Shown one piece after another: positions 10,747-27,525 of a stretch of 64,000 nt of DNA. A program made the position numbers and the translations under genes. Below the pieces are notes generated by a model, which saw nothing but the letters and a program-made list of their open reading frames with translations, did not search any database and was not told the DNA's origin. The stretch spans positions 1 to 64,000 of the forward strand of contig NZ_JARXIA010000029.1 in assembly GCF_031127875.1 (NCBI RefSeq), in the 5' to 3' direction. Source of the stretch: Pelagicoccus sp. SDUM812005 (GTDB lineage: Bacteria; Verrucomicrobiota; Verrucomicrobiia; Opitutales; Opitutaceae). The first letter of the stretch is position 1, and every line of letters starts with the position of its first letter.

Positions 10747-10774
10747 CTGTTTTTGGGGCTTGTTCTTTAGGAGA

Positions 10775-12637
10775 CTATCTCCCGGCTTCGATATCGCTAT
10801 AGGTCTGGTAACCATTGGTATCGATTAGAATAAAACCAACAGCAGGCACGCCTTCAGGAACCAAGGCGCTTACACTGTAGCCGTCGGGAGCAACTCGCGC
10901 TGCTTCCCTCATCCCAAACAGCAGGGCGGGGCCTTCAACAGCCCGATGCTTCACCTTCGCTGCCCCTGGGGCGCCCTGGAAAACAACGTAAGCTCGCTCG
11001 ATCGCAGGACCGGATTTCCGCGCCGTCAAGCTCGCCTTGCGGGACGACGCATCGAAGCGCAGCCCTTCGATCGACACCGCATCGTCCGCACGATAAGCGT
11101 AATAAGGGTTCAAGTACGGCAGCTCCGCTCGATTCGCTTGCAAGGAACGATCGAGCTGCGCCGCCAGTCGTTCGACAAGCGATCGGAATTCCGGCTTCTT
11201 CGCCAAATCGAACCGCTCCTCCAGGTCATGGCGATCTCCGTCCTTATAAAGTCGATACAGTTCGTAGTCATTCGTCGCGTAGCGCTTGTACAGCTTGAAG
11301 TCGCCACTGCGGATCGCTGACTTCATAGAGGCATCGCCATTGTGCGGAAAATGCCAAAAGAGGTGGTCCCGCTCCTGCCCTGCCGCATCGACGATAGACG
11401 CGCTCCTTCCGTGCAACACCGGCGAGATGTCCAAACCGCTAAGCTCCTCTCGCTCCTCGGCATCGATGCTTGAGTTCGTCAGGTCGAGCAAGGTCGGGAA
11501 AAAATCGAGCTGGTTCACCAATCCATCGAATTCGGATCCCGCAGGTATGCCTGGTCCCGCGACCACCAACGGAACGCGAATGCCGCCCTCTTCAGCATAC
11601 TTCTTCCCTTTTTTCAAAGGGTAGTTATCCGAGATGATTTCCGGTCCCCGAACCTCGGCCCCGCCATTGTCGGAAGTAAAAAAGATATAGGTCGTATCGA
11701 TCAGCTTCTTTCCAGGATGGCGCGGGTCGTCCGTTCGTTCCAGGAAGTCGACGACCCGCCCCAAGCTCCAATCCACGGTCGTCACCATGGCTGCAAAATA
11801 GGGATTCTGCTGGCCCGGCAAGGTCATGTCGCCCGGCTCGGGCGGAAACGGCTGCCCTAGTTTGTCGCAATAATATTCCAGCAACTCGCCATTGCGAGTC
11901 AGTACCGGCCAGTGAACCATCCAATGGCACAGATTGAGAAAGAAGGGCTGCTCGCCGCTTTCCTTCATAAAGGATAGCGCCGATTCGGTAACTTGGTCGT
12001 AAGGATAGGAAATGCCGTCGGGGAACTTGTCGCTAAAAGGTGGATACTTTTCCTCGCTCAACGGGTAGCGCTTGTCGTCCGCAGTCGCAAAGTCCTTGGT
12101 CCGGTCCTCCATCCCACGGTGTACCCCTCGGTCTTGGTCCACAACCTCGAAACCGTAGTTGGACGCGGTCAAGCCCACATGCCATTTGCCGGAATGGCCC
12201 GTCCGGTACCCGTTTCGCTTCAAGGCATCCGCCAAGGTCAAAGCGTCCAGATCGAGATGGGACTCCAGATAAGGAGCCACCAAACGTTGGCTTTTGGCCC
12301 CGTTTTGCATCGACCCGAGATGTACGTGGGTTAGGCCCAGCTTTGCCGGATGCTGACCGGTGATGATCCCTGCCCGCGAAGGAGAGCAGGTCGGCGCCGG
12401 AGCATAGCCTTGGGTGAAGTTCATCCCCGATGCCGCCAGGCGCTTGACGTTTGGCGTCTCGTAGGGACAGGGGTCATCGAGGTCGTTGAGCTCCAAGTCC
12501 TGCCAGCCAAGGTCGTCGACATAGAAGATGATGACGTTCGGCTTCGACACACCCTTCGTAGCAGGCGTTTCCTCTGCCGCAAAACCTGCCGAGAGAAGTC
12601 CGAGCAACACGATAATTGTAGTTAAAATTCGGTTCAT
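10775..12637 (-). CDS. S1 family sulfatase (formylglycine-dependent)
   Basis: Exported type I sulfatase of 620 residues. The ATG at 12637 is preferred to the one at 12808 because it gives a clean signal peptide (MNRILTTIIVLLGLLSAGFA). The metal-binding start FYVDDLGWQD (residues 38-47) and the formylglycine motif CSPSR at Cys84 are present, followed by GIITGQHPAKLGLTHVH. The later FTSDNGG motif of S1 enzymes is also seen. About 120 residues beyond the catalytic domain form an extra C-terminal part. Cys84 must be converted to formylglycine by a maturase that is not in this window. The substrate is inferred to be a sulfated fucose-containing glycan from the neighbouring fucosidases. Confidence 0.93.
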   Translation of the reverse strand: MNRILTTIIVLLGLLSAGFAAEETPATKGVSKPNVIIFYVDDLGWQDLELNDLDDPCPYETPNVKRLAASGMNFTQGYAPAPTCSPSRAGIITGQHPAKLGLTHVHLGSMQNGAKSQRLVAPYLESHLDLDALTLADALKRNGYRTGHSGKWHVGLTASNYGFEVVDQDRGVHRGMEDRTKDFATADDKRYPLSEEKYPPFSDKFPDGISYPYDQVTESALSFMKESGEQPFFLNLCHWMVHWPVLTRNGELLEYYCDKLGQPFPPEPGDMTLPGQQNPYFAAMVTTVDWSLGRVVDFLERTDDPRHPGKKLIDTTYIFFTSDNGGAEVRGPEIISDNYPLKKGKKYAEEGGIRVPLVVAGPGIPAGSEFDGLVNQLDFFPTLLDLTNSSIDAEEREELSGLDISPVLHGRSASIVDAAGQERDHLFWHFPHNGDASMKSAIRSGDFKLYKRYATNDYELYRLYKDGDRHDLEERFDLAKKPEFRSLVERLAAQLDRSLQANRAELPYLNPYYAYRADDAVSIEGLRFDASSRKASLTARKSGPAIERAYVVFQGAPGAAKVKHRAVEGPALLFGMREAARVAPDGYSVSALVPEGVPAVGFILIDTNGYQTYSDIEAGR

Positions 12638-12749
12638 ATTAAGTAATTCGTAATCCTCGGAACGTATTAACGGTGGGAATACAAGGACAAGGCACCCTCC
12701 TTGCCAGAGGGCCCTAAAACTAAAACTGCCTCGAGCAGACGAGTCCCAT

Positions 12750-13814
12750 CTACTCGCCTCTCCAGTTGTCGATCTTGACGAAGAACCCTGCCGTCGGATC
12801 CTTGTCATGGCAGGCTAGGAAAAGGTATTCGGGATGTCCGTCCTTCCAGAGGATATGAGGGCGCTCCGTGCGAGCTAGCTTTCGTCCGAAGTAAGCGGTA
12901 TTCGTCTGGTATCCAATCTCCGGGATTCCCCAGTCGATTCCGTCTTTCGACTTGTAGATCAAACCGGGACGATTTCCGCCATTTTTAACTTCCTTCCCCG
13001 GATACCAATTTCCCTCGAGCATTCCTCGAACATCGCGTCGATCTTCCACGATCATGTAATAATAGCCATTATAGTAAAACGCATAGGGATCCTCGATATC
13101 CAGTTCCTTGTCCGCATAGCTGATCAATGGGTTTCCTTCGTAGTTGACATAGGGTCCCTCGATCTTGTCGCTCACTGCCAAGGAAATCTCGCGATAGTTG
13201 TGCTTGGTCGTCATCGACTTGTAGTAGATCCTGTATTCGCCTTCTGGAGTCGCGACGAAAGTAGGGTTCGAAGCGTGCCGAATGTCGTAGCCACCCATTT
13301 TTCCTGCCGCTGGAATGATCGGGTTATGCGGACTCTCGGTCCAAGGCCCGTTGAGCGACTTCGCCGTCGCAATCCCGACTTCCTGCATCGAGCCATTGGC
13401 GTCGGTGTGCTTGTTCAGCAGGTAAACCAGCACATAAGTATCGCCGACCTTCGAAATCTGAGGATTATGATAGGATGTTTCCTCGCAAGCGAACAGATCG
13501 CCCTCGAGCGTATACGGTCCCTCCGGAGAGTCAGCCGTCCAGTGTACGATCTTGCTATTCTTAATCCAGTTTCCCTTGTTCGGTATGACCGAATTGAATA
13601 CGTGCAGCTTCCCCTTCTCGTCGTAGATCGGGGCCATCCCCCAAGTCCAGGACTCGCCATCAGACGGCAAGATGAATTTGCCCGGGATGTGCGACTTGCT
13701 AAACTCCGACTCCTCTACGGTAACGCTCTTCGCCCCCAAACCAGCCGCGAACACGGTGCCCGCTGCTCCTAAAATTGCTAATTTCTTCAAGATCATCTTT
13801 TTAACTGTATCCAT
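12750..13814 (-). CDS. Exported beta-propeller glycoside hydrolase (GH43/GH117-like)
   Basis: A 354-residue protein with a signal peptide (ILKKLAILGAAGTVFAAGLGA). The ATG at 13814 is chosen over a GTG at 13826. The order of motifs fits the five-bladed beta-propeller hydrolases of clan GH43/GH117. An early Trp/Met-Ala-Pro segment (SWTWGMAP) is followed by YHNPQISKVGDTYVLVYL, then RHASNPTFV, then LDIEDPYAFYYNGYYYMIVED with an acidic residue that may be catalytic. The bladed spacing of Trp and Tyr supports this. The exact family and substrate cannot be decided by eye. It sits between a sulfatase and a putative TIM-barrel glycosidase in the same operon. Confidence 0.75.
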   Translation of the reverse strand: MDTVKKMILKKLAILGAAGTVFAAGLGAKSVTVEESEFSKSHIPGKFILPSDGESWTWGMAPIYDEKGKLHVFNSVIPNKGNWIKNSKIVHWTADSPEGPYTLEGDLFACEETSYHNPQISKVGDTYVLVYLLNKHTDANGSMQEVGIATAKSLNGPWTESPHNPIIPAAGKMGGYDIRHASNPTFVATPEGEYRIYYKSMTTKHNYREISLAVSDKIEGPYVNYEGNPLISYADKELDIEDPYAFYYNGYYYMIVEDRRDVRGMLEGNWYPGKEVKNGGNRPGLIYKSKDGIDWGIPEIGYQTNTAYFGRKLARTERPHILWKDGHPEYLFLACHDKDPTAGFFVKIDNWRGE

Positions 13815-13829
13815 ATTTCTTAACACGTT

Positions 13830-14978
13830 CTAACGCCAATCGATTTTAGCTTCCTTGCTTTCGAGGTCTACCCATACCGAGGCGTGCTCATAGTCCCGGC
13901 TCAGCTTCCAACCATCGCGCGACATTTCGCCCAGAGGCTTGCCGAGCGGCTTGTCGAACTCCGGATACCACTCCAGGCAGCCCATCTCCATGCGGTAACC
14001 CCAATTGTAGATGAAGTAGCAGTTCTCCTGGGCGCCGGCCAAAAAGCAGGCCAAGGGGAAAAGTAGGTTATCCTTGGCCAACTTCCGCTTTTCCTTCAGC
14101 GGCTTCTGCATCATTTCCTTATCGATCCAAGCGAAGCCGGGCCAGGCCTTCATAACGACGATCTCCCCCGCCTTCCCGGCGCGTTCCATTTCCAGGATGT
14201 CCTGCAGCATCAGCTCCTTTGAGCGACTGTTGAAATAGCCGAAATGCTCGATCATGGCCGCATCCGTGTATTCGGTTTCCACCGTGCCCATGCTCCAGTT
14301 CGGAGTGGAGCGGATTCCGTTGTACACGATAAGCTTGTCGTCCCCGAGCTTCTCGCGGGTCTCGCGAATGATGTCCTTCAATCCCTGCTGGATCGCGTCG
14401 TATTTCTCTTGTCCCCACAGCTCGATGTTCCCCTTGTTTTCGACCTGCGGAAACGCGTCCATGAAAACCCCGTCCGTATTTCCTTGGTTGATCGCTTCGG
14501 CCGCTACATCCGTCCACCAATCCCGAAAGTCCGGATTCGAGAGATCGTAGCGCATCAGCCCCTTGCTCTTGAAGTCCAGCTCACCATCAGCCTTCCGCAG
14601 CCACCACTCCGGGCGCTGGGCGTACTCGTCATGCGCGTCGTACATCGCGTAATCCAAAAAGGTGTTCCAATAGAAGATCACCTTCATCTTCGGGTTCAGC
14701 TTCTTGAGCTGCACCGCCTCGGCCTCGATCCCCGCTTCGGTACTGCCATGCGTCCGAACGGCATGACCCTTTTCCAAGCAGATGAAGTTCGAGCGAGAGG
14801 CGACAAACTCCGCTTCCGCCGGCGTCATCAATCCAGCGTTCTTGCCGAAGTGGAAAGCAATGGGAACCGTATCCCAGCTAAACTCTGGGTAACGCTCATC
14901 CTTCCCCGAAGCCGCCGCTGCTGCCAAAAAGGCAAGCGAACCCATTATACAGGTTTTAATAGAAATAGTTTTTTTCAT
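13830..14978 (-). CDS. Putative exported glycosidase, GHL15-like TIM-barrel family (copy 1)
   Basis: A 382-residue protein with a signal peptide, start taken at the ATG 14978 (a GTG lies at 14987). It resembles the hypothetical glycosyl hydrolase families (GHL15-type) but no activity is known to me. Visible motifs are PEFSWDTVP after the signal, LEKGHAVRTHG and IFYWN, RDWWTD, TDGVFMDAF with Asp174, MIEHFG with Glu244, and a C-terminal YEHASVWVDLESKEAKIDW. The Asp at the end of DGxFxD and the Glu about 70 residues later are plausible catalytic carboxylates. Two relatives lie at 18693-22055 (fused) and 22103-23269. The short gaps to its neighbours (about 15-18 bp) indicate an operon. Confidence 0.7.
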   Translation of the reverse strand: MKKTISIKTCIMGSLAFLAAAAASGKDERYPEFSWDTVPIAFHFGKNAGLMTPAEAEFVASRSNFICLEKGHAVRTHGSTEAGIEAEAVQLKKLNPKMKVIFYWNTFLDYAMYDAHDEYAQRPEWWLRKADGELDFKSKGLMRYDLSNPDFRDWWTDVAAEAINQGNTDGVFMDAFPQVENKGNIELWGQEKYDAIQQGLKDIIRETREKLGDDKLIVYNGIRSTPNWSMGTVETEYTDAAMIEHFGYFNSRSKELMLQDILEMERAGKAGEIVVMKAWPGFAWIDKEMMQKPLKEKRKLAKDNLLFPLACFLAGAQENCYFIYNWGYRMEMGCLEWYPEFDKPLGKPLGEMSRDGWKLSRDYEHASVWVDLESKEAKIDWR

Positions 14979-14996
14979 AAAGCACACACAGATTTG

Positions 14997-16859: not shown

Positions 16860-18662
16860 TTATAACTTCTCGATCTCGACATAGTAGGCGGGATAAACGC
16901 GACCCGCCGCATCGATCAATTGGGCCTCCATGTCGTAGCGACCGGCCGGCACGAAACCGGTATAGCTCACCGCCTCTTGCCCTTCCTGAATCTTCCGTTC
17001 GCCCGACAGGCCTGCAACATACAGGTAAGCCGCAGTAAAGTCGTCCTTCACGCTTGCCGGAAAAACGCGGTCCAGTTCCAGTCGCCGCTCTTCCTCGGGA
17101 AAAGTCGCGTTGATCGGCAAACCGCTCTCCACCGGGAAGCGACGCAAGCTGATCCGATACTCTCCGTCCTCCACGAATTCGACCTTCCAGCGCCCCGTCC
17201 CTTGCGAAGCGTTCGCAGCTCCATACTGATGCCAAACATGTAGGTGCTTGCCGGTCAGCATATCGTGGGCGGAGATGCGACTGGGGTTCTCGTACTGCGA
17301 ACCAACCTTTATATAGGCGTAGCGTTCATTCAGGCGCTCGCTTTCGAAGGACTGCCACCACCTTTCGTACCCCTCGGCCAGCCGAGCCGCTACTTCGGGG
17401 TGCGACTCGATGACGTTCTGCGTCTGGGCCAAGTCGGTCGTAACGTCGTAAAGCTCATTGCCGTTCACCAAGCGCCAGCGCTCGTCCATCACCGTATAGG
17501 TCTGGTACTTGAGCAGGTTTTGCTTCCGCTGCGTATCCATATACAGGATGCGATTCGGCCACTCGGCCTCTGCGTCGTGAAACAAGCGAGCGAAGCTCTT
17601 GCCATCCAGCGGCTTGACCGGAGTGAACTGCAGTCCCAGCAGATCAACGAAAGTCGGCAATACGTCGTAATGCGCAACCAATCGATCTACGTCGTAGCCC
17701 CCCTCGACGCCGCCAGCCGGCCAACGCACGAAAAAGGGGACGCGGTGACCGCCCTCATAAACGCTGCCCTTGCTTCCGCGCAAGCCGCCATCGTAAATGC
17801 GATTGCCGCCGGCGGTACCGTTGTCAGTCGTAAAAATGAGAATCGTATTTTCGCGCAGGCCCAGGGCGTCCAGCTTCTCTTCCAGGCGCTGCATGTTATC
17901 GTCGATGTTGGTGATCATCCCGTAGAAGCGCTTGAAGCGATCCGGCAGTTCCGGCACGTCCTTGTAGAGATTGTAGTACTCCTCCGGAACGTTGTAGGGA
18001 GCGTGCGGAGCATTGGTGGAGATGTAGGCGAAAAACGGCTGCTCCTTGTTCGCTTCGATAAACTCCATGGCTTCTTCGAAGAATACGTCCGTACAATACC
18101 CTTCGTAAGCCTCCAGCTCGCCGTTGTGCCAATAGGTATCGTCGAAATAGTCGTTGCGCCAGTAGTCCGGCCCCTGCGTGATGCCGCCTGCCCCGTGGCG
18201 AACGACCTCGTGAAAGCCCCGATCCTCCGGACGGAAGGGATAGTTATCCCCGAGATGCCACTTCCCGAACATGCCGTTAACGTATCCATTTTCCGCTAGC
18301 ACTTGAGGGAGAAGCCGTTCGTCCTCCCACAGCAGGGAACGCCCGGTAATCGTATGAAAAACGTTGAGTCGGTTGCAGTGACGGCCCGTCATCAAGGAAC
18401 CGCGGCTCGGAGCGCAGGTGGTGGAAACGTGGTAGTTGGTAAATCGTACGGACTCGTCGTGCAGCCGATCCAAGTTCGGCGTCTTAATGATCGGATTCCC
18501 CCGATTCCCCATGTCGCCATAGCCTTGGTCATCCGTTATCACCATAACGATGTTTGGTTTCGACGAGCTCACCAGGGGTGACTTTCTCGCTTTCTCGACA
18601 GCGGCTGAGCAACTCGCTCCCAAGGCCGCCGCAATAATCAATCCACTTAAAATTCGTTTCAT
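16860..18662 (-). CDS. S1 family sulfatase with C-terminal beta domain
   Basis: A 600-residue exported sulfatase. The start at ATG 18662 gives the signal peptide KRILSGLIIAAALGASCSA; the ATG at 18692 would add ten residues in front of it. Metal-site segment VITDDQGYGDMG (residues 41-52), formylglycine motif CAPSR at Cys83, LMTGRH, and FTTDNGT are all present. After the catalytic part, from about residue 490, lies an extra domain with GEYRISLRRFPVE. A related extra domain occurs in the sulfatase at 52683-54440 (GRYRITLRQWPAE). Both proteins end in similar residues (YVEIEKL versus FTEVEAL). The substrate is inferred from context to be a sulfated fucan. Confidence 0.93.
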   Translation of the reverse strand: MKRILSGLIIAAALGASCSAAVEKARKSPLVSSSKPNIVMVITDDQGYGDMGNRGNPIIKTPNLDRLHDESVRFTNYHVSTTCAPSRGSLMTGRHCNRLNVFHTITGRSLLWEDERLLPQVLAENGYVNGMFGKWHLGDNYPFRPEDRGFHEVVRHGAGGITQGPDYWRNDYFDDTYWHNGELEAYEGYCTDVFFEEAMEFIEANKEQPFFAYISTNAPHAPYNVPEEYYNLYKDVPELPDRFKRFYGMITNIDDNMQRLEEKLDALGLRENTILIFTTDNGTAGGNRIYDGGLRGSKGSVYEGGHRVPFFVRWPAGGVEGGYDVDRLVAHYDVLPTFVDLLGLQFTPVKPLDGKSFARLFHDAEAEWPNRILYMDTQRKQNLLKYQTYTVMDERWRLVNGNELYDVTTDLAQTQNVIESHPEVAARLAEGYERWWQSFESERLNERYAYIKVGSQYENPSRISAHDMLTGKHLHVWHQYGAANASQGTGRWKVEFVEDGEYRISLRRFPVESGLPINATFPEEERRLELDRVFPASVKDDFTAAYLYVAGLSGERKIQEGQEAVSYTGFVPAGRYDMEAQLIDAAGRVYPAYYVEIEKL

Positions 18663-18692
18663 AGTCTTAAAGTCCTTCATGTAACCGTTCAT

Positions 18693-21600
18693 TCAACGCC
18701 AGGTGATCTTCGCCTCCCCCTTCTCCGTATCCACCCACACGCTCGCATACTCGAATTCGCGGGTGAACTCCCAAGCGTCGGGAGCGACACGGGTGTACGC
18801 TCCCTTGGGAGGGCCAAGCCGTTTCCTCAACATAGGAAAGTCGTGCAGGGATCCAGAATTCAGCGTCCATCCCCAACCATATTGAAAATACGAATACGGC
18901 TGGGCCCCGATCAGGAAGCAGGCCAAGTGGTACTCGATTCGATCCTTCGCCAAGGCAGCCATCGCTTGCTCTCTCGACTGGGCCTCGCCTGACAGGCTTT
19001 CCTTCCCTTCCACATGCGGATCGTTTTCGACGCCGATGCGGAAGATCGACATCTTCCCGTCCTTTGCGAGACGCAACATATCGTCCCAATCCTTGAGCAG
19101 CTTCTCCTTGCTAAGGAGCTCTTCGCTATAGTGCTCGAACATGTTGGCATCGATTGCCGGATAGGCGTAGCGGGCAATCTCATCGGTGGTATTATTGCCG
19201 AGCACGATCTTTTCCGGCCCCAGTCTCTTCTTCAGCTCCGATATCAATTCGCCTTGAGCGATATGGACTTCTTCCTTCCGATCTTCGCGCAAAAAGAAAA
19301 AGGCATGCATCTGATCGATGAAGGCTCCATCGCAACCGGATGCTTCAACCCCTTTGGCCACCGTATCCACCCACCACTTACGAAACTCAGGGTTTAGTAC
19401 ATCGAACCCGTAGACGTTGCGGCGGTGGTGAAGCTTGCCCGTTTCCGGATTCACCACGAGAAACTTCTTGAGCTCTGGATGGGCGTCGATCCGTTCCGGC
19501 GTAATATTCTTGCTGTAGGACGTAAACGGCCACGCCCAGGCCGCATTGAAATAGAAGAGCGCCTTAATGCCAGGCTTCGCCTCCTTGAAAGCGGCAGCTT
19601 CATGCTTGGCTCCCAGTTCTGCAGCGCCGAGAGGCTTGAGGCCGTGCGATTTTTCTATGGTTAAGAAATCCGTCCGCTCCGCGATAAACGCGACTTCCTC
19701 GGGACTCAGCAAGCGATTCGAGTCGCCAAACATATAATACATGGGAGTCGAGTCCCAACTGAATTTCGGATAATGGTCCTGAGGCACGAATTCAGTTCCA
19801 TCGCTGATACGCAAGGAAGGCTCCTTGATCCGCCCCATCTTCGAAACATCCAACGGTTCGATCCCTAGGGCCACGGCCGGGCTACCGGGCCGGAAGCGAA
19901 AGTCGCGTCCTTCCGGATCCACGAACAAGGGATCCCCGAACACGCTCTTCGTTTCCAATCCAACCGCCTGCAGACGCCGCAGGTGCTCTTCCATCCACCC
20001 GGAATCGCTGGGGTGGAAGTACAGGTTGGAATCCATCTGCGTTTCCTCCAAATTCGGGAGTCCGTCGTAAGGTTCCCCTCTTCCTTTTGGCCTTTCGCCA
20101 TGCGCTTTGCCACCATCGGGATGGGATACGATGATATTGTTGAAAACCTTCGAACCCTTCACGCTAACCCACTCGTAGCTGATATAGCCTGACTTGGGAC
20201 TCGTGCGAGGAGCTACGATGAAATTGTTCGTAATATCGTTCACTCCCTTGGAAGCGATCCCCGCGCTGAAGCCGTAGTTGTTATACAATACATTGCCATG
20301 GATCGTCGTCTCATGCTGGTCGTCATCGCAACGTATGGCCGCTGGAAGGGTGTGCTCCAAGTTGTCGTGCAAAAAGTTATAACGCACGATGTTACCCGTA
20401 CCCGCTCCCGATACGTAGATGCCATTCCCATCCGATAGCTTTTGCACGGAATGAGTGATTTCGTTGTATTCGAAAAGGTTATGCCTGGAGTGGTTGTACG
20501 TCTCTCGTGCCTTCCAGCTTTCATAGGTTTCTTCAGTGCTCTCGACAACCTCGGCTGGGATCTCGTGGCGCCGAACTGTCCTTCCCCCTTCTCCATCTAA
20601 GCGTCTGTCCGGCTCCACTCGATTGGTGATTAACACCGCTGCGTATCCACTATGCGAAACATGATTGTGGGCCATGTAGTTGTGGCCGCTCTGCCACGCC
20701 CAGATTCCGGGAGAATGCCAGGTAATTTCGCTGAAGTGATGTATGTAGTTGTTAACGACCTCGTTGTGGTGATTCGCATCCTTGGTGCCGGGACCGTAAC
20801 CGGCCATGATGATTCCCGCCTCGCCGAGGTGGGCAAATTCGCAATTCTCGATGCGGTTTCGCTGGGCGTGCAGGTCCAAGCGTACCCCCGTCCCTCCGGA
20901 ATCCAAGAAATCGCAATCGATTACCTGGCACTCCTCAGCGCCGCGAAACCTCAGCATCGCGGAGGGACTGTCGAAAAGGTCCCAGTCGTGCTGCAAGCCC
21001 CAGCCCAATCGGGCTTCGTCACTCGTCCACGCCAGGCGATCCCCATGGGTAAAGGTCAAGCCCTCGAAAGCGATTCCTCTCACGGCCTCGTCCAACGGCC
21101 CCTCGTAGTCGATGGCGCCCTCTACGCGAACGAGCTCGCTCGTCGACGGCGCCAGTATGCCGCGCGGCGATCCATCGGCAGCTGGATCGGAAGGCCATAG
21201 ATAGATCTTTCGCGTCTTGGTATTCACCACCCATTCGCCGGGCTCGTCCAAGGACTCGAGAACGTTCTCGACCCACACCGTTGCTCCGAAGGGATCGTGA
21301 ACCCACTCCGGCAGATTCCCCATTTCGTACGTGGCCGAAACTGCCGTTCTCGCGATGCCGCGCTCTTCGTCGACGGAGCGAAGCGGAAGCATATTGATCA
21401 CCCAAGGGCGGTAAGGCCTAACCTGGATTTCGACATCCTCAAGGTTATCCCAATCCTTCAAATGGCCTTTCGGAAAGTAGAGGGTCGTTCGGTCGCCCGT
21501 CTTGCTTGGGTAGAAACCTTTGTCCCTAGCCCGGCTTAGGCGACCCTTGGCATCGAACAGCGTATGGAAACGCTCAATACCCGCTGGCATATCAGCCACC

Positions 21601-22055
21601 CATACCTTGCCCCTCGCTTTGCGCGGCAGCGAAGGCGGAGCCGACTTCAATCGCTCCCAGTCTTCTACCGGAACCCCAGCGCTCACCACCGGCGCTTCGC
21701 CCGGGTACGCGGTAAAGCTCAGAAATGGAGCGTCGATCCATTCCCCCGCTCCGTACTTTGGAAGCGCCAGCTCTTGCGAACGGGCCGGAGCACCATCTCC
21801 GAGGCCTAAAACCAACGTCTCGTTCAGTTGATGGCGACCCTCTCGCAGGATAATCTTAACGGGCTCGGAATACCCGTTCGCCCGCAATTCACGCACCGCC
21901 GCCACCGCATCCGGAAGCGATCCGTACGGACGCTCCACGCTGCCGTCGGCCATAGCCCCAGCTTGGGGGGCTACGTAGAGCTCTTTGGCAATGCCTCGCT
22001 GCTGTCCCAGCAAAGCCAGAGCAGCGACCAACAAAAACAATGTTCCCCTAATCAT
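18693..22055 (-). CDS. Fusion of a parallel beta-helix enzyme (GH141-like) and a GHL15-like putative glycosidase
   Basis: A 1120-residue exported protein (signal peptide MIRGTLFLLVAALALLG). Residues 25-750 form a right-handed parallel beta-helix: N-terminal ELYVAPQAGAMADGSVERPYGSL, then many NxI/NxF rungs (NRIENCEF, NEVVNNYIHH, NIVRYNFLHD), ending in FGDPLFVDPEGRDFRFRPGSPA. This pattern is shared by GH141-type and related beta-helix enzymes. From residue 762 the second module begins (YPKFSWDSTPMYYMFG). It matches the two stand-alone neighbours, with IEKSHG, RKWWVD, DGAFID (Asp914), MFEHY (Glu974), HLACFLIGAQPYSYF and YASVWVDTEKGEAKITW. Fusion in one polypeptide suggests two cuts on the same glycan. 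I cannot name the activity of either module with certainty. Confidence 0.8.
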   Translation of the reverse strand: MIRGTLFLLVAALALLGQQRGIAKELYVAPQAGAMADGSVERPYGSLPDAVAAVRELRANGYSEPVKIILREGRHQLNETLVLGLGDGAPARSQELALPKYGAGEWIDAPFLSFTAYPGEAPVVSAGVPVEDWERLKSAPPSLPRKARGKVWVADMPAGIERFHTLFDAKGRLSRARDKGFYPSKTGDRTTLYFPKGHLKDWDNLEDVEIQVRPYRPWVINMLPLRSVDEERGIARTAVSATYEMGNLPEWVHDPFGATVWVENVLESLDEPGEWVVNTKTRKIYLWPSDPAADGSPRGILAPSTSELVRVEGAIDYEGPLDEAVRGIAFEGLTFTHGDRLAWTSDEARLGWGLQHDWDLFDSPSAMLRFRGAEECQVIDCDFLDSGGTGVRLDLHAQRNRIENCEFAHLGEAGIIMAGYGPGTKDANHHNEVVNNYIHHFSEITWHSPGIWAWQSGHNYMAHNHVSHSGYAAVLITNRVEPDRRLDGEGGRTVRRHEIPAEVVESTEETYESWKARETYNHSRHNLFEYNEITHSVQKLSDGNGIYVSGAGTGNIVRYNFLHDNLEHTLPAAIRCDDDQHETTIHGNVLYNNYGFSAGIASKGVNDITNNFIVAPRTSPKSGYISYEWVSVKGSKVFNNIIVSHPDGGKAHGERPKGRGEPYDGLPNLEETQMDSNLYFHPSDSGWMEEHLRRLQAVGLETKSVFGDPLFVDPEGRDFRFRPGSPAVALGIEPLDVSKMGRIKEPSLRISDGTEFVPQDHYPKFSWDSTPMYYMFGDSNRLLSPEEVAFIAERTDFLTIEKSHGLKPLGAAELGAKHEAAAFKEAKPGIKALFYFNAAWAWPFTSYSKNITPERIDAHPELKKFLVVNPETGKLHHRRNVYGFDVLNPEFRKWWVDTVAKGVEASGCDGAFIDQMHAFFFLREDRKEEVHIAQGELISELKKRLGPEKIVLGNNTTDEIARYAYPAIDANMFEHYSEELLSKEKLLKDWDDMLRLAKDGKMSIFRIGVENDPHVEGKESLSGEAQSREQAMAALAKDRIEYHLACFLIGAQPYSYFQYGWGWTLNSGSLHDFPMLRKRLGPPKGAYTRVAPDAWEFTREFEYASVWVDTEKGEAKITWR

Positions 22056-22102: not shown

Positions 22103-23269
22103 CTACTTCCAAATGACCTCGCCCGTTTCGTTTTCGATATCGAGCCGCACCGAGGCATGCTTGTACTCTCGCGAATAGGTGTATCCAGATTTCACAGCCG
22201 GTCCCAAGGGTGGCCCTAAAGCACGGTCGTAGTCTGCCGGACGCGTCATCCAGGTTTTGCTTTTCTTAGCATCGTAACTATCCTTCAGGTCGAAATAGCT
22301 GTACTTCTCGGCGCAAATGAGGAACAGGGCCAACTGGTAGTTGAAACGGCTCTCGGCATCACGGATCGCGGAAGAAGCGTTTCCTCCCTTCGCTCGCGGA
22401 GCTTCATCCGCGTCCTGCAAGTTCCGGCCTATCCCGCAGGTATAGGCAATAATCTTTCCCTGCTGGGCCGCTTTCTGGAAGGCTTCCATGCCCTTCGCTA
22501 CATAGTCCTTGCGAGACATGTTCACGGCGCCTTCGAAGCCTTCGATATAGGATCCATCCAGCGTATCCATATAACTGAGACCCGAGTCAGGAAAACGCGC
22601 TCGCAAGATATTCGCCAGCATGAGCTTGTTCGGCCCCAGCATCTGGCGCGTATCCTCCATCATGGTAAGGTAACCCGACAGTTCCGCTGCCTTCTTCTCC
22701 GGGCTGATTACGTTTTTCAGGAAAACCGGTTCTACGATCTTGACCACCCCGTCGAGGAAGATGCCGTCGATGGAGGGATCCGAACAAACCGCTTCCGCGC
22801 TATCGATCCACCAGTCCCGCAAAGACTCGCTCGACAAGTCGTAAGCTTCGATGCGGTCGCGGATCAGCTTGTCGTTCCCCTCGCGATCGAGCAGAAAGGC
22901 GCCGGAAACGTCCTTCAACGCTTCGTTGGCAGCGTATCCACCGTAATGCACGATCACGTTGCGATAATACAAAATCTTGGTGTCCGGATTGATTTTCTTT
23001 ACCGCTCGTGCGGCCTTCAGCGTTCCGGCTTCGATCGAGCCCGAGTCCTTATGCCCATTGGCCTTCTCGAAAGTGATAAGCGGAAAGCTCGCCAAGTACC
23101 GGATCTCTTCGTCGGTGTAGGCAGTATCTTTCCGGATGTGCACATAGAGGGGAACCGTATCCCAAGAAAAGTCCGGCATTCGATCCGGTACGGGAACCTC
23201 AGCGCCCTTCAAAGAGCTCACCGACACGAAGGCCGCTGCAGCGAGCGCGAACAATTTTTCAAGTTTCAT
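22103..23269 (-). CDS. Putative exported glycosidase, GHL15-like family (copy 3)
   Basis: A 388-residue exported protein. The ATG at 23269 gives a signal peptide (MKLEKLFALAAAAFVSV); the ATG at 23320 would add 17 unrelated residues. It is a relative of 13830-14978 and of the C-terminal half of 18693-22055, with PDFSWDTVPLYVH, FEKANGHKDSGSIEAGT, ILYYRN, RDWWID, DGIFLD (Asp173), YIEGFEG (Glu243), QLALFLICAEKYSYF and YKHASVRLDIENETGEVIW. The two carboxylates have almost the same positions as in copy 1 (174 and 244). It is the first gene after the TonB receptor, separated by 325 bp. Confidence 0.7.
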   Translation of the reverse strand: MKLEKLFALAAAAFVSVSSLKGAEVPVPDRMPDFSWDTVPLYVHIRKDTAYTDEEIRYLASFPLITFEKANGHKDSGSIEAGTLKAARAVKKINPDTKILYYRNVIVHYGGYAANEALKDVSGAFLLDREGNDKLIRDRIEAYDLSSESLRDWWIDSAEAVCSDPSIDGIFLDGVVKIVEPVFLKNVISPEKKAAELSGYLTMMEDTRQMLGPNKLMLANILRARFPDSGLSYMDTLDGSYIEGFEGAVNMSRKDYVAKGMEAFQKAAQQGKIIAYTCGIGRNLQDADEAPRAKGGNASSAIRDAESRFNYQLALFLICAEKYSYFDLKDSYDAKKSKTWMTRPADYDRALGPPLGPAVKSGYTYSREYKHASVRLDIENETGEVIWK

Positions 23270-23594
23270 AAATAACTCAGTTTTTGGGGAACGGGGATCT
23301 GGCGGCGTAGCCGACGCCACAGGGCAGACGCGAGCTCGCGGTTTCGCGAATCGACTGTACCTGGGGCAGGCCTCGACAAGCCATCTACACTATCAACTGC
23401 GACCGAATCTGCCCATCCTCCTTTTAGAGGGGTCGGTCGAGATACCCCGACAAGACTCACGCGAGGCGGACTTAACCGACCTCGCGTGACTTTCAACCCG
23501 CTAGCTGCAACCTAGCTACCGACCGCTAGCGGATATAAGGTCCCGACGCTTTGAACGCGCCAGGACCCGATTTTTCGAACCAAGATTTCGAATC
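23270..23594. other. Receptor-to-operon intergenic region with hairpins
   Basis: This 325-bp gap lies downstream of the TonB receptor stop and upstream of the nine-gene downstream run, both on the minus strand. It contains a perfect 10-bp stem at 23457-23489, a small GGGGT/ACCCC hairpin near 23440, the palindrome CCGCTAGCGG near 23525, and a REP-like GGCGTCGGCTACGCC hairpin near 23305. No open frame of interest is seen. A promoter for the downstream genes may lie here. Confidence 0.5.
23457..23489 (-). terminator. Possible terminator or attenuator hairpin after the TonB receptor gene
   Basis: Perfect 10-bp inverted repeat TCACGCGAGG / CCTCGCGTGA with a 13-nt loop, 106 bp past the receptor stop. 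There is no T-tract on either side, so intrinsic termination is uncertain. An mRNA-processing or partial read-through hairpin that sets receptor against downstream enzyme levels is equally possible. Confidence 0.45.
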
Positions 23595-26500
23595 CTAGAA
23601 ACTGATGGAGTTCGAAAGCACGAACTGGCGAGCCGCCGGAATCGCAACGCGATTCGGAGTTCCGTCAGGCTGACGTTGTACAACGATAGGATCGGAATCG
23701 GCGAAAAGGTTGCGGATGTTCAACTGCACGTTCCATTTCGCTCGGTCCCCGAAGATCTTCCGGTTATAACCGAACCAAATATCGGTGCTGCCTTTCGCTT
23801 CGTTATAAAACGGATTCTCGACATCTACCACGTTCATTTCCAGGTCGAGCTCGCCGGGCAAATAGGTCATGGTGGTTCTGCCGTATCCAATCGCAGTTGG
23901 GTCGCGCCAACGGTGAGCGGCACCCATCTTAACTCCCTTCAGGAAGCCGTCGCGGAAGGTGTAGTTGCCCAGGACGCGGAAGCTGTGCTCCGCCAATTCC
24001 GGACTGGTCGAGCCTTCCAGGGCCTTCGCCTTGAAAAGGGCCTGGCCTTGGGCGCCACTAGCCAAGGGCGTGCGGATGGAAGTCCCTCCCGCAAACGGAT
24101 CCCTCAAGCTGAGCGTCATGGCGTTCGCGCCGTTGCCGCGGTAACGCGTTCCGTTTTCCACCGCGGACATAGCGAGGACGAACTCCTCCAACATGCGCTC
24201 GAAACGGGGAGCGACATTGGTACGGGTAACCGATTGCTGGCTGGCGCTCACCGACAAGCGGAGTTGCTTCGTGGGATTCCACGTCAAGGTGAGTTCGGTA
24301 CCTTCCGCGGCGAGGTCCGCCGTGTCGGCGAGTAGTCCGTTCACAACTACGTTTCTCGTAAACGAGGGGCTGATGCCAGCGTCGGCATCTCCGGCGCTCA
24401 GCTTCCAGTCTTCCGTTTCCTTCACGAAGTCGGACCAGAAGTTATCATACGCATTCCAAATGTCGTGGTACTGCTGCAAGGTAAGGTATTCGCCCGCTGC
24501 AAGGTTGTTGGAATCCACGATACCATCGCCCGCGATCCCTTGCGGTTCTCCGTTCGCAGGGTTGATCCCGTCGTCGAAGGTCGGGTCGTCGAACTGGCCG
24601 TCCAAGTCGCGGTCGTACTCCATCAGCTCATCCCAGTAGCGACCGTAGAAGCGGCCCTGCTGGTTCACGAAGCTTCCGGCGTTCGCGTTCACGTCGTTGA
24701 ACGAACCGTTGATCATGGCAGCCTCGTACCGGTTGATGCGGGCCACCAGCTTGTTGCCGGCGAGGTTGATGGTCACGCCGTAGTCCTTGGTTTCGCCGCT
24801 CGCGCCCGGGACGGAATTGCCCCAGAAATCGAACTTGCCCACGTTCGGGCTGAAGTTGGAGGACTCGCCGTAGTGGGCCGTGAGCCCGAGCCATTCCGGC
24901 AACCATTTCTTGGGCGCCTTCAAGACGAGTCCGTATCCAAAGGTGCTGGTCTTGGGGGCCGCTTCGACCTCCCCGTCTTCCAGCCTAAACATGTCAGGCG
25001 AAAGGATGGCCACGTTGTCCAACTCCGCAGGGCCTGGCACGTCCCCTTCGTCGGTTCCGTAGCGCGGCGGCTCGTTGTTGCGAATTTGCGTCACCTGGTC
25101 CTCGCGATAGCCGAGGTTAGCGACGAGGTGCCCACCGAGGTAGTAGCTCTGCAAGTTTGCGGCCTGGGAAGAAACTTCGGTTCGGGTCAGTACCCCGCCC
25201 AGATCCAGGAACTGAGGCGTATAGTAACCTTGCTTGGTTTGCTGGAGCGCTCCGCTCACCTCGCCCGTCTCCGGATTCCCTCTACTGATATAAGTCAGCG
25301 GAATTTCATAGTCGCTCGGATAATCGAGAATCGTTTCCGCAGGCGCGCCTGTAGTATAGAAATCCGTGGCCCTGAAATTCGGATCCTCGAATGCGTTCAG
25401 GTAAGGATCCGATATATAGAAGATCGCCGAAGCGTTGCGCTGGAAAATCGTCGCATCCGTCGCCAAGTGGAAATTCGCGTTGTTTCCGAATGTCATTGGC
25501 TTCTGGTTGAAACGCTGCGTATCCACCGTGGACTCGTCGAGCAGCACCGAGAGATTGTGACGGCCTAGCTTGGAGAGGAAGCTGTCTTCGCCAAAGGTGT
25601 CGGCGAAGTCATACTTCGCGAAAGCCGTAGCGCGCATCGCTTCGCGCTGGTCCGCGTTGCGCGTGTTGGAGGAGGCTTCCGCGAAAAAGTAGAGGCGTCC
25701 GAAATTCGGGTTGGGCACGCCCAAGCTCGTATTGTCGTTCGGATCCTGGGCCGGCCCTGCCGGATTCGTATAGTTCACATCGATATCGATGCTCGGCGAC
25801 CCGTTGACCACGAAACTGTGGCGGGACGAATTCTCCCTGTTATAAGCGATCTCTATACCGAACCTCCCGTCCTTGGTCGTCGCATCGATAAAGGCCATTT
25901 TTCGGTCGAACTCAGTGCTATAGTTGTCGATCGAGCCGGAATAGAGATGCTTCCGAAAATCGAATATCTCGTAGTCCAGAAGCCCTTGGGCCCGGTAGCC
26001 TTCGTACTCCGGGAAAAGCCCCGTGTCGATGTTGCCCATGTGCAGGTTGCGCACGAGCACGTTTTCGTTGCGACTGTAGTTGTGGTTCGTGGGATTGTAA
26101 TAGGGATTGTTGAGCTCCGCCACCGTATTGAGCCACCCCGTATCGACTCCGTAATCCGCCAAGCCGTCCGTGCGGCCGGTCGAGCCGTCGAAGACCGCCA
26201 TCCAGCCTGTACGATGCAGGTGCTGGTTCTGGTAGTAGGAGAGCGGGATATCCTCGCCGTTCGCATCCAGCCCCAACCAGGTGCTCGATTGCCCGGCGCG
26301 CCAGTTGTTGAAGGGATCGTTGATACGGCGCCCTGCCGCATTCGTCACCTCGCCATCCACCGTGCTGCCCCACTGCGTCCCATAGGGATCGTCGACAAAG
26401 GTGGTCAAGGTCTCGAGCGGCCCCAATCGGTCAACCGGTACCGCATTGGTATGCCCGATCTCGTAGTTGGCGCTGATATTGATATTATGCTCCGCCAGCG

Positions 26501-27278
26501 GCTTGAACTTTACGGCGAAATAGCGACGGGCCTCGTCCTTGTAGGCAGGCTTCTGCATGAATTCGTCCTCTGCCTCCAAGGCGGCGAAACGAACCGCGAG
26601 CTTATCCTCGATGAGGACCTTGTTCATGTTGACCGAAAACTGCTGCGAGTAGTTGCTCTCGAAATTTTCCGTTGAAACGCGATGGCTGAGCTTCATGGAG
26701 TCGTCGGACAATACCGCCGACTGCAAGGAGGTGTTCACGATCCCGCCGGGCGAGCCCAAGCCGAAGAGGAAGGAGTTAGCCCCGCGGTTGATGTCCACGC
26801 GACTCGATACGTAGCTGTTGAACGGAATGGCCGACTCGAAATAGTTCGTCGTCCTCGTCGGGGCCGCCAGGCCACGCACGCGCAGGGCCGCGTCCGGGTT
26901 CTGTCGCGTTTCGGACTGGTTCAAGTCGCCGTTTTCACCGGCCACTTGCAGGTAGTCGCTCATGGAACCTGCCGCCTCGGTGCCCGTGGTGTAAGCGAGA
27001 ATCTCGTCGATGCTGGTCGCGCCGACGTCTTCGATGAATTGCTCGGTCACTACCTGCACGGAAGTGGCCACGTCCTTGAGTTCGGTCCGGAGGCGACCGC
27101 CGGCCATGGTCTGGGAGGAGTAGTAGCCTTGATCTTCAGCGCCCTCTACCGTGAACGGCGATAGCTCGAAGATCTCCTCCTCGTCTTCCTGTGCCAGCAT
27201 GACGGCAGGCACAAGGGGGACGCTGGCAAAAAGCGCCAGTTTCCGCAAGGGGATCAGATATGAATGGGGATTCTTCAT
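23595..27278 (-). CDS. TonB-dependent outer-membrane receptor
   Basis: A 1227-residue outer-membrane receptor. The start at ATG 27278 gives a signal peptide (LRKLALFASVPLVPAVMLAQ); an upstream ATG at 27404 would place 42 unlikely residues first. The mature protein begins with the acidic EDEEEIFELSPFTVEG, a TonB-box-like start typical of Verrucomicrobia receptors. A plug domain follows (DVATSVQVVTEQFIEDVGATSIDEIL..., ALRVRG, VDINRGANSFLFG, GGIVN), then a long barrel ending in the aromatic ...VLSNSISF expected for BAM recognition. No SusD-like gene accompanies it. It heads the first catabolic block and faces the sensor kinase across a 247-bp divergent region, so oligosaccharide import is the likely role. 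Confidence 0.93.
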   Translation of the reverse strand: MKNPHSYLIPLRKLALFASVPLVPAVMLAQEDEEEIFELSPFTVEGAEDQGYYSSQTMAGGRLRTELKDVATSVQVVTEQFIEDVGATSIDEILAYTTGTEAAGSMSDYLQVAGENGDLNQSETRQNPDAALRVRGLAAPTRTTNYFESAIPFNSYVSSRVDINRGANSFLFGLGSPGGIVNTSLQSAVLSDDSMKLSHRVSTENFESNYSQQFSVNMNKVLIEDKLAVRFAALEAEDEFMQKPAYKDEARRYFAVKFKPLAEHNINISANYEIGHTNAVPVDRLGPLETLTTFVDDPYGTQWGSTVDGEVTNAAGRRINDPFNNWRAGQSSTWLGLDANGEDIPLSYYQNQHLHRTGWMAVFDGSTGRTDGLADYGVDTGWLNTVAELNNPYYNPTNHNYSRNENVLVRNLHMGNIDTGLFPEYEGYRAQGLLDYEIFDFRKHLYSGSIDNYSTEFDRKMAFIDATTKDGRFGIEIAYNRENSSRHSFVVNGSPSIDIDVNYTNPAGPAQDPNDNTSLGVPNPNFGRLYFFAEASSNTRNADQREAMRATAFAKYDFADTFGEDSFLSKLGRHNLSVLLDESTVDTQRFNQKPMTFGNNANFHLATDATIFQRNASAIFYISDPYLNAFEDPNFRATDFYTTGAPAETILDYPSDYEIPLTYISRGNPETGEVSGALQQTKQGYYTPQFLDLGGVLTRTEVSSQAANLQSYYLGGHLVANLGYREDQVTQIRNNEPPRYGTDEGDVPGPAELDNVAILSPDMFRLEDGEVEAAPKTSTFGYGLVLKAPKKWLPEWLGLTAHYGESSNFSPNVGKFDFWGNSVPGASGETKDYGVTINLAGNKLVARINRYEAAMINGSFNDVNANAGSFVNQQGRFYGRYWDELMEYDRDLDGQFDDPTFDDGINPANGEPQGIAGDGIVDSNNLAAGEYLTLQQYHDIWNAYDNFWSDFVKETEDWKLSAGDADAGISPSFTRNVVVNGLLADTADLAAEGTELTLTWNPTKQLRLSVSASQQSVTRTNVAPRFERMLEEFVLAMSAVENGTRYRGNGANAMTLSLRDPFAGGTSIRTPLASGAQGQALFKAKALEGSTSPELAEHSFRVLGNYTFRDGFLKGVKMGAAHRWRDPTAIGYGRTTMTYLPGELDLEMNVVDVENPFYNEAKGSTDIWFGYNRKIFGDRAKWNVQLNIRNLFADSDPIVVQRQPDGTPNRVAIPAARQFVLSNSISF

Positions 27279-27525
27279 AGGGGGGGTATATGGAGTTGAG
27301 GTTTGCTTTGATTCAGAGACAAGCCAAGGCAGGCCAATCCGGGACGGCAGGGACAGGGGTCCGATGGCCGAGAAAGGAGGGGTACGAAAGAGGGGGTTCC
27401 CCACGTTACGCCTAGATCCTGATATTGCCTACCCCCCGTTTAAGGGGTACTTTCAATCTTTTACAAAGCCGCCAATCCATTACGCCTTGAACAACCTCCT
27501 TTCCCGCCTGCCCCTTTTCGACACT
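27279..27525. promoter_or_regulatory. Divergent promoter region with repeated GGGGTA boxes
   Basis: This 247-bp region separates the TonB receptor (-) from the kinase/response regulator genes (+). GGGGTA occurs at 27283-27288, 27379-27384 and 27444-27449. The last copy is part of an inverted repeat (TACCCC...GGGGTA, 27430-27449). Such boxes could be binding sites for the response regulator encoded downstream, which is inference only. Confidence 0.35.

What the first reader, a model, noticed from the sequence alone, without database searches (positions are those of the whole stretch)
18693..22055. Fusion of a beta-helix carbohydrate enzyme with the uncharacterised glycosidase-like module
Residues 25-750 read as a right-handed beta-helix, and residues 762-1120 are a complete copy of the family found as separate genes directly downstream (13830) and upstream (22103). 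The module boundary is clean, at the end of the FGDPLFVDPE...GSPA cap typical of such helices. Such fusions hint that the two activities act on adjacent bonds of one substrate and give a Rosetta-stone link for the whole family.
Basis: partly seen in the sequence, partly recalled or inferred. Interest (0 to 1): 0.62.

Follow-up and report, generated by a model that had tools for sequence, protein, structure and literature searches.

The report
Two fucan-cutting enzymes in one protein
A bacterium equipped to digest the sulfated seaweed sugar fucoidan encodes one secreted protein that joins two enzyme types, each known singly from fucoidan breakdown; I found no description of the joined form in the papers I could search.

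Summary
The 1120-residue ORF is one continuous, probably secreted protein: an N-terminal GH141-type beta-helix (about 23-742) and a complete C-terminal GH168 TIM barrel (about 759-1120), a known endo-fucanase family. Closest solved relatives: 9rx2 and BT_1002 (N-half); GH168 endo-1,3-fucanases 9jos and Fun168A 8ya6 (C-half). Catalytic acids known for GH168 (D914/E974) and proposed for GH141 (D542/D577) are kept. An assembly error is unlikely: the same architecture is a single frame in Rhodopirellula rubra and two Pontiellaceae, and the parts lie in tandem in this genome's second cluster and in Allomuricauda. It was seen in 3 of 387 sampled genomes of its phylum (own included), 1 of 392 Planctomycetota and 0 of 397 of Allomuricauda's family. 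The joint removes the GH168 signal peptide. Related fusions pair the same families: GH141-GH29, GH29-GH168, GH141-sulfatase. The GH168 halves do not form one clade (AU p 2e-6), so the pairing arose twice or one half was replaced. Best reading: a two-headed fucanase attacking different bonds of a sulfated fucan; which bond the GH141 half cuts is inferred. New variant of a known kind, moderate interest.

The parts
18693..22055 (-). GH141-GH168 fusion ORF, 1120 aa
21990..22055 (-). probable signal peptide, residues 1-22
   Evidence: hydrophobic N-terminus read by eye; helix at residues 2-17 in the model; no signal-peptide predictor was run
19830..21989 (-). GH141-type right-handed beta-helix module, residues 23-742
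   Evidence: 9rx2 E 1.3e-151; profile of 28 relatives against 5mqp BT_1002 E 1.6e-44; structural match to 5mqp Z 33.5 over 433 residues
20430..20432 (-). D542, proposed catalytic acid of the GH141 module
   Evidence: invariant in the 28 rows of A2 and in the rows printed; aligned with construct position 528 of BT_1002 (weak second stretch)
20325..20327 (-). D577, proposed second catalytic acid of the GH141 module (in IRCDD)
   Evidence: invariant in the 28 rows of A2 and in the rows printed
19782..19829 (-). inter-module linker, residues 743-758
   Evidence: between the GH141 cap motif and the mature start of GH168; pLDDT under 50 over residues 744-775; junction comparison
18696..19781 (-). 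GH168 TIM-barrel module, residues 759-1120
   Evidence: 9jos E 2.6e-176, 8ya6 E 6.2e-142; Z about 28
19314..19316 (-). D914, predicted nucleophile (FunA D206)
   Evidence: alignment to 8ya6 with the 15-residue numbering offset seen on comparing; the 9jp3 chain has Ala at this place and is titled mutant D171A
19134..19136 (-). E974, predicted acid/base (FunA E264)
22103..23320 (-). separate GH168 of another branch, best relatives Fun168D 9joc/9jof
16860..18692 (-). sulfatase, begins directly after the fusion's stop codon
14997..16835 (-). GH29 alpha-L-fucosidase family protein
13830..14987 (-). separate GH168 of a third branch, best relatives PbFucA 8rg3, MeGH168 9nhf, Fun168E 9jom
12750..13826 (-). 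GH43-like protein
   Evidence: 33.7 bits, cut-off 32.2
10775..12808 (-). sulfatase
9562..10815 (-). GH29 alpha-L-fucosidase family protein
23595..27404 (-). TonB-dependent receptor-like protein upstream of the gene run
   Evidence: Plug domain

Best explanation
The ORF encodes one secreted, two-headed enzyme for a sulfated fucan. Shown: one continuous open frame; a GH141-type beta-helix followed by a complete GH168 barrel; the acids known (GH168) or proposed (GH141) to be catalytic are kept; the gene sits in a closely packed run with other GH168s, sulfatases and GH29 family genes next to a TonB-dependent receptor. Inferred: the GH168 head cuts alpha-1,3 bonds inside the chain by a retaining mechanism (D914 nucleophile, E974 acid/base), with a non-sulfated fucose favoured after the cut because the three +1-subsite residues named for Fun168A are kept (R878, Q915, Y976). 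The GH141 head cuts another bond of the same or an adjoining stretch, most likely alpha-1,4, with D542/D577. The two heads work at the same place on one chain, each exposing ends or sites for the other, and the fragments go on to the sulfatases, GH29 enzymes and the receptor. The fusion arose by joining tandem genes near the GH168 signal-peptide cleavage site.
For: Sequence and structure. Catalytic residues; FunA D206/E264 mutants were inactive (PMC7401878, passages); Fun168A +1 residues R170/Q207/Y266 (PMC12210190, parts 1 and 2 of 3 of the text). GH141 enzymes of W. fucanilytica are endo-fucanases, two shown to cut alpha-1,4 bonds (PMC12786026: abstract, introduction, sections 2.1 and 2.4.5, further passages). 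Same fusion in three more genomes; tandem GH141-GH168 in this genome's contig C31 and in Allomuricauda. Of the 15 closest GH141 modules, 12 lie where the surroundings can be judged; 9 of those 12 have a close GH168 fused or within 5.5 kb. Fusions among the same families: GH141-GH29 (L035), GH29-GH168 (L074), GH141-sulfatase (L079, a more distant GH141).
Against: No activity data for this protein. Two of the three printed signatures of the GH141*6 fucanase branch are not met, so this module is a sister or separate branch and alpha-1,4 cleavage is not shown. GH168 itself is not only alpha-1,3: FWf5 of this family is an endo-1,4-fucanase (PMC10778895, title and passages), and eight tested FunA homologues showed no activity on the fucan used (PMC7401878, passage), so the alpha-1,3 call rests on similarity to Fun168A and 9jos. 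[quoted passage not shown] The fusion is rare: 3 of 387, 1 of 392 and 0 of 397 sampled genomes, with at most two candidates scored per genome. 3 of 12 judged GH141 loci have no close GH168 nearby (G217, G429, K14). The model is of middling quality (mean pLDDT 67.6, pTM 0.58); the relative placement of the two active sites is unknown.
Confidence: 0.6

Rival explanations
1. Debrancher plus endo-cutter: the GH141 head is an exo-acting alpha-L-fucosidase (as BT_1002 is on rhamnogalacturonan II) that strips side fucoses or end residues so that the GH168 head can reach the backbone.
For: The closest solved fold with an activity known to me is BT_1002. The slot before GH168 holds a GH29 (an exo-fucosidase family) in L074, and the slot after GH141 holds a GH29 in L035.
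Against: The four W. fucanilytica GH141 enzymes tested lacked fucosidase activity and were endo-fucanases (PMC12786026, introduction). BT_1002 is a distant relative (phmmer with the module alone only E 6.2e-06), while 9rx2, of unknown activity to me, is close.
Confidence: 0.23
2. The GH141 half is mainly a binding or positioning platform, with little catalysis, that holds the substrate for GH168.
For: GH141-like modules of more distant relatives are also joined to non-catalytic domains (Fn3-associated, chitobiase C-terminal-like, F5/8C).
Against: D542 and D577 are invariant in the 28 rows of A2, which a platform would not need.
Confidence: 0.08
3. Assembly or sequencing artefact joining two neighbouring genes.
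For: In this genome's own C31 cluster the two genes lie in tandem in the same frame, so an error could in principle merge such a pair. No reads could be examined.
Against: Same fusion in three other genomes, two of them with the joint at the same place; the GH168 part here has no signal-peptide remnant before it, unlike the C31 copy; the C31 pair is 67% and 60% identical to it, not the same locus.
Confidence: 0.02

Closest known systems
GH168 endo-1,3-fucanases (Fun168A/FunA 8ya6; Poly41_55130 9jos)
   Same: whole module, 54-68% identical in the alignments; both catalytic acids and the three +1-subsite residues named for Fun168A
   Different: the solved GH168 constructs have 354-423 residues, one domain; here the module is the C-terminal half of an 1120-residue protein without a signal peptide of its own
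GH141 (BT_1002 5mqp; Wf141 endo-fucanases; 9rx2)
   Same: beta-helix fold, two invariant acids D542/D577, weak GH141_M insertion-domain signal (E 3e-05, below the Pfam cut-off)
   Different: own branch: tree clade of 15 rows at 100/100; two of three printed GH141*6 signatures not met; fused to GH168
   Same: the same enzyme families joined end to end in single frames
   Different: other pairings; I saw no published description in the searches named in the full report
Polysaccharidases with two catalytic domains, such as CelA and the CelAly-like cellulase-alginate lyases (PMC13235733, passages seen)
   Same: two catalytic domains in one chain acting on one wall matrix
   Different: other substrates; those carry binding modules, this one a linker of about 16 residues and no recognised binding module

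Membership tests
GH168 | sequence similarity over the whole catalytic domain | tested here: met
   8ya6 E 6.2e-142 over module residues 1-362, 9jos E 2.6e-176 over 2-362; PF14885 positions 1-270 of 271
GH168 | (beta/alpha)8 fold | tested here: met
   model residues 747-1120 to 9jp3, Z 28.5, rmsd 3.7 over 339 residues
GH168 | catalytic Asp and Glu (FunA D206, E264) | tested here: met
   D914 and E974, invariant in the 21 rows of A3, aligned to 8ya6
GH168 | endo-fucanase activity | not testable with these tools
   needs protein
GH141 | sequence similarity to characterised members | tested here: met
   profile of 28 relatives finds 5mqp BT_1002 at E 1.6e-44; single-sequence phmmer only E 6.2e-06
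GH141 | parallel beta-helix fold like BT_1002 | tested here: met
   top row, Z 33.5, rmsd 6.1 over 433 of 601 residues; the rmsd is high
GH141 | two catalytic Asp (BT_1002 D523, D564) | tested here: inconclusive
   D542 aligns with construct position 528 of BT_1002 (weak stretch, numbering not verified); D577 is invariant but lies outside the aligned part
GH141 | Pfam GH141 insertion domain PF21231 | tested here: inconclusive
   24.4 bits against a cut-off of 27
GH141*6 fucanase branch | three printed signatures xHQxWxxxD, xDG(x24)NxxxxNx, xRxDx (PMC12786026) | tested here: inconclusive
   first two not met as printed, third met at 574-578; the module has LQHDWDLFD, QH in place of HQ, as have close relatives in Mariniflexile AS56, a strain the paper names as a carrier; a transposed print is possible but unverified, and the second signature fails in any case
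GH141*6 fucanase branch | endo-1,4-fucanase activity | not testable with these tools
   needs protein

The most novel reading that the evidence does not exclude
Verrucomicrobiota and Planctomycetota have repeatedly built single-chain fucan-degrading machines by shuffling a small set of modules (GH141, GH168, GH29, sulfatase), and this member cuts both the alpha-1,3 and the alpha-1,4 backbone bonds of one sulfated fucan, so that the fusion pattern itself reads out which activities are needed side by side on a given fucoidan.
Probability: 0.33. Interest if true: 0.62.

Novelty: new variant of a known kind. Interest (0 to 1): 0.42.

Why it matters
Fucoidan is degraded slowly and stores algal carbon (PMC12786026, introduction); which enzymes must work together is poorly known. 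Two fucanase families in one chain, with other pairings of the same families in relatives, give a short list of directly testable pairs and a likely role for a GH141 branch whose activity I could not find measured. The gene is also a candidate tool for making fucoidan oligosaccharides.

Tried and rejected
Artefact joint: judged very unlikely; not tested on reads. Single origin of all four fusions: the GH168 halves reject one clade (p 2.1e-06; with L074 added, a group chosen after seeing the tree, p 4.5e-04), the GH141 halves do not (p 0.208). Two independent fusions, or replacement of one half, both remain; the equal linker length (8 residues between MGR and SDG in the window, R. rubra and B12227) speaks for one fusion and a later replacement. 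L083/L033 has a shorter joint; it looks like the L059/L031 joint with the stretch between two GSP repeats missing. One uniform family for the three GH168s: rejected. Promoter and terminator scans gave no more than shuffles. NCBIfam gave nothing useful for the fusion or the two neighbouring GH168s. 9rx2 is not among the Foldseek or VIA rows shown (that library ends in April 2026), so its title, organism and activity are unknown to me.

Literature limits: searches (22 of 23 listed; 8 of 9 listed; 19; 16; 15 of 85 listed) showed no title or abstract start about a GH141-GH168 fusion; one search was swamped (90,354 hits, 25 listed, none of them holding GH168); (PbFucA) found none. I opened nine papers, none of them in full. 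Open-licence papers only are held; Sichert 2020 was seen only in a reference list.

Rows dropped: trees use one row per distinct module; truncated modules (GH141 span under 600, GH168 span under 330) and low scorers were left out. The AU tests use 31 GH168 rows (over 430 bits) and 15 GH141 rows (over 900 bits). In the neighbourhood count 3 of 15 (L034, L038, L039) were left out: L034's contig ends at the module; L038 and L039 are not fused to GH168 but their contigs are too short to see 5.5 kb on both sides.

Full report
WHAT IS THERE. ORF 18693-22055 on the minus strand encodes 1120 residues from an ATG. Pfam finds Beta_helix (best stretch 370-478, E 3.9e-15), a weak GH141 insertion-domain match (149-288, E 3e-05, below cut-off) and GHL15/PF14885 (824-1104, E 4.9e-37, profile 1-270 of 271). 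Against solved structures, residues 40-742 match 9rx2 'parallel beta-helix repeat protein' (E 4.9e-151), residues 750-1120 match 9jos (E 1.6e-179) and 747-1120 match 8ya6 endo-1,3-fucanase (E 2.7e-145). Foldseek titles 9jos 'structure of endo-1,3-fucanase from GH168 family'. The C-terminal family is therefore not uncharacterised: it is GH168.

THE N-TERMINAL HALF. A profile of 28 relatives reaches BT_1002, the GH141 alpha-L-fucosidase, at E 1.6e-44; the single sequence only reaches E 6.2e-06. AlphaFold on a 23-row alignment gave mean pLDDT 67.6 and pTM 0.58. The beta-helix half aligns best with BT_1002 (Z 33.5, 433 residues, rmsd 6.1), ahead of mannuronan epimerases and alginate lyases. D542 and D577 are invariant in the 28 rows and kept in the more distant rows printed. 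D542 falls on construct position 528 of BT_1002, which would be the reported D523 if the construct is offset by five; I did not verify this. PMC12786026 (abstract, introduction, sections 2.1 and 2.4.5 and further passages read) reports that four GH141 enzymes of Wenyingzhuangia fucanilytica lack fucosidase activity and are endo-fucanases, two of them shown to cut alpha-1,4 bonds. Its printed signatures are only partly met here: LQHDWDLFD has QH for HQ, the second signature fails, the third is met. Among the ORFs over 600 residues that I printed from Mariniflexile AS56 loci (some cut by the locus ends), a strain the paper lists as a carrier, none has the printed HQ form and three (L115, L117, L120) have HDW. 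Activity on a fucan is thus likely, the exact linkage open.

THE C-TERMINAL HALF. D914 and E974 align with 8ya6 chain positions that, with the 15-residue offset, are FunA D206 and E264 (counted by me from the printed alignment), whose mutants were inactive (PMC7401878, passages). They are invariant in the 21 rows of A3. The 9jp3 chain has Ala in place of this Asp and is titled mutant D171A with fucotetraose. The Fun168A +1 residues R170, Q207 and Y266 (PMC12210190, parts 1 and 2 of 3) correspond by my reading of the alignment to R878, Q915 and Y976; N267 is Ser here. The two neighbouring GH168 genes differ around these places and have other closest structures: 13830-14987 is nearest PbFucA 8rg3, then MeGH168 9nhf; 22103-23320 is nearest Fun168D 9joc. 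The cluster thus holds three GH168 types, probably with three specificities (inference). Against a firm linkage call: GH168 also holds an endo-1,4-fucanase, FWf5 (PMC10778895, title and passages), and eight FunA homologues were inactive on the fucan tested (PMC7401878, passage).

IS THE FUSION REAL AND WHERE ELSE. In 58 loci, four different single frames hold both modules: the window, L031 Pontiellaceae B12227, L032 Rhodopirellula rubra and L033 Pontiellaceae B12219. The phylum samples, with at most two candidates scored per genome, found it in 3 of 387 genomes of the window's phylum, its own included (G272 and G292 are the same two Pontiellaceae), in 1 of 392 of R. rubra's phylum (R. rubra itself) and in 0 of 397 of Allomuricauda's family. 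These are lower bounds. In a deeper look at 57 relatives (own included) 6 had a match at E 1e-20 and only the window's genome had the fusion. The genome's own C31 cluster carries GH141 and GH168 as tandem genes with a stop and a signal peptide between, as does Allomuricauda L040. That the window is Verrucomicrobiota follows from K14 (Puniceicoccaceae), whose genome lies in the window's family (G015 and G427 give the same places).

THE JOINT. Nine unfused GH141s of this branch end 3-10 residues after the MGR (or MGL, MGI) motif, and in eight of nine unfused close GH168s printed an N-terminal stretch that looks like a signal peptide precedes SDG (L076 lacks SDG). In the window, R. rubra and B12227 exactly eight residues join MGR to SDG. 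The fusion therefore removed the GH141 stop and the GH168 signal peptide. B12219 lacks the stretch between two GSP repeats.

FUSION NETWORK. K14 (L035) has GH141-GH29 in 1339 residues; G205 (L074, L175) GH29-GH168 in a frame of 861 residues (857 from the ATG); G403 (L079) GH141-sulfatase, with a more distant GH141. PF14885 was found 49 times at E 1e-30 or better in 26 of 387 genomes (up to six candidates scored per genome); 10 of 49 frames exceed 600 residues. Of these ten, three are this fusion, one is GH29-GHL15, two carry an esterase-like domain, one an Ig-like domain, one FG-GAP/BACON, one papain and CBM domains; one (G058:C20) was not examined. Of 15 close GH141 modules, 12 can be judged: 4 fused to GH168; 3 next to a close GH168 (own C31, Allomuricauda, G205); 2 within 5.5 kb (G430, G1203); 1 with a copy about 245 kb away (G217); 1 fused to GH29 without a close GH168 in the genome (K14); 1 without (G429).

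HISTORY. In the GH168 tree of 31 rows the window's module is sister to the Allomuricauda tandem copy (99/96), while the three other fused modules group with the GH29-fused one (96/93). One clade of the four is rejected (p 2.1e-06; with L074 p 4.5e-04). In the GH141 tree of 15 rows it is not (p 0.208). Either the same two families fused twice or one half was replaced later.

CONTEXT. Order of transcription on the minus strand: GH168, the fusion, sulfatase, GH29, GH168, GH43-like, sulfatase, GH29, with gaps of 47 bases or less or overlaps between the listed ORFs (starts as listed mechanically); a TonB-dependent receptor-like gene lies upstream, then, on the other strand, a sensor kinase and a response regulator. 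Four more sulfatases, a GH29 and two beta-helix proteins lie between 50 and 63.3 kb. This fits a fucoidan-use cluster.

LITERATURE. No title or abstract start about this fusion was listed; one search was too broad to count. [quoted passage not shown] Passages of PMC11943901, PMC12872454, PMC10778895, PMC8857213, PMC10880615 and PMC13235733 were seen; none of those passages describes the fusion.

VERDICT. A real, recurrent but rare bimodular enzyme built from two known fucan-active families. A new variant of a known kind; the two-linkage mechanism is likely but unproven.

Noticed in passing
L174:497-4288 and 4452-7418: Two adjacent Pontiellaceae B12227 ORFs (1263 and 988 aa) end in a GHL15 domain but have long N-terminal parts without a Pfam match; residues 1-800 of the first have no PDB sequence match at E 0.1 either.
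   Followed up: partly
   Followed up: partly
L035:5311-9327: GH141-GH29 fusion of 1339 aa in Puniceicoccaceae K14; its GH29 half is nearest PDB 9rzx, whose code is close to 9rx2, perhaps one deposition project.
   Followed up: partly
L033 junction (L083): The joint lacks the stretch that lies between two GSP repeats in the L031 joint, as a simple deletion would give.
   Followed up: partly
window 50088-52466: Beta-helix protein with a C-terminal PDZ domain, an unusual pair for a carbohydrate cluster.
   Followed up: no
L018 (own genome C39:14259): GHL15 domain inside a very long protein with bacterial Ig and hexapeptide repeats.
   Followed up: no
window 27151-29517: Sensor kinase with F5/8C-like matches, on the other strand from the TonB receptor and followed by a LuxR-type regulator; perhaps a sugar sensor of the cluster.
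   Followed up: no
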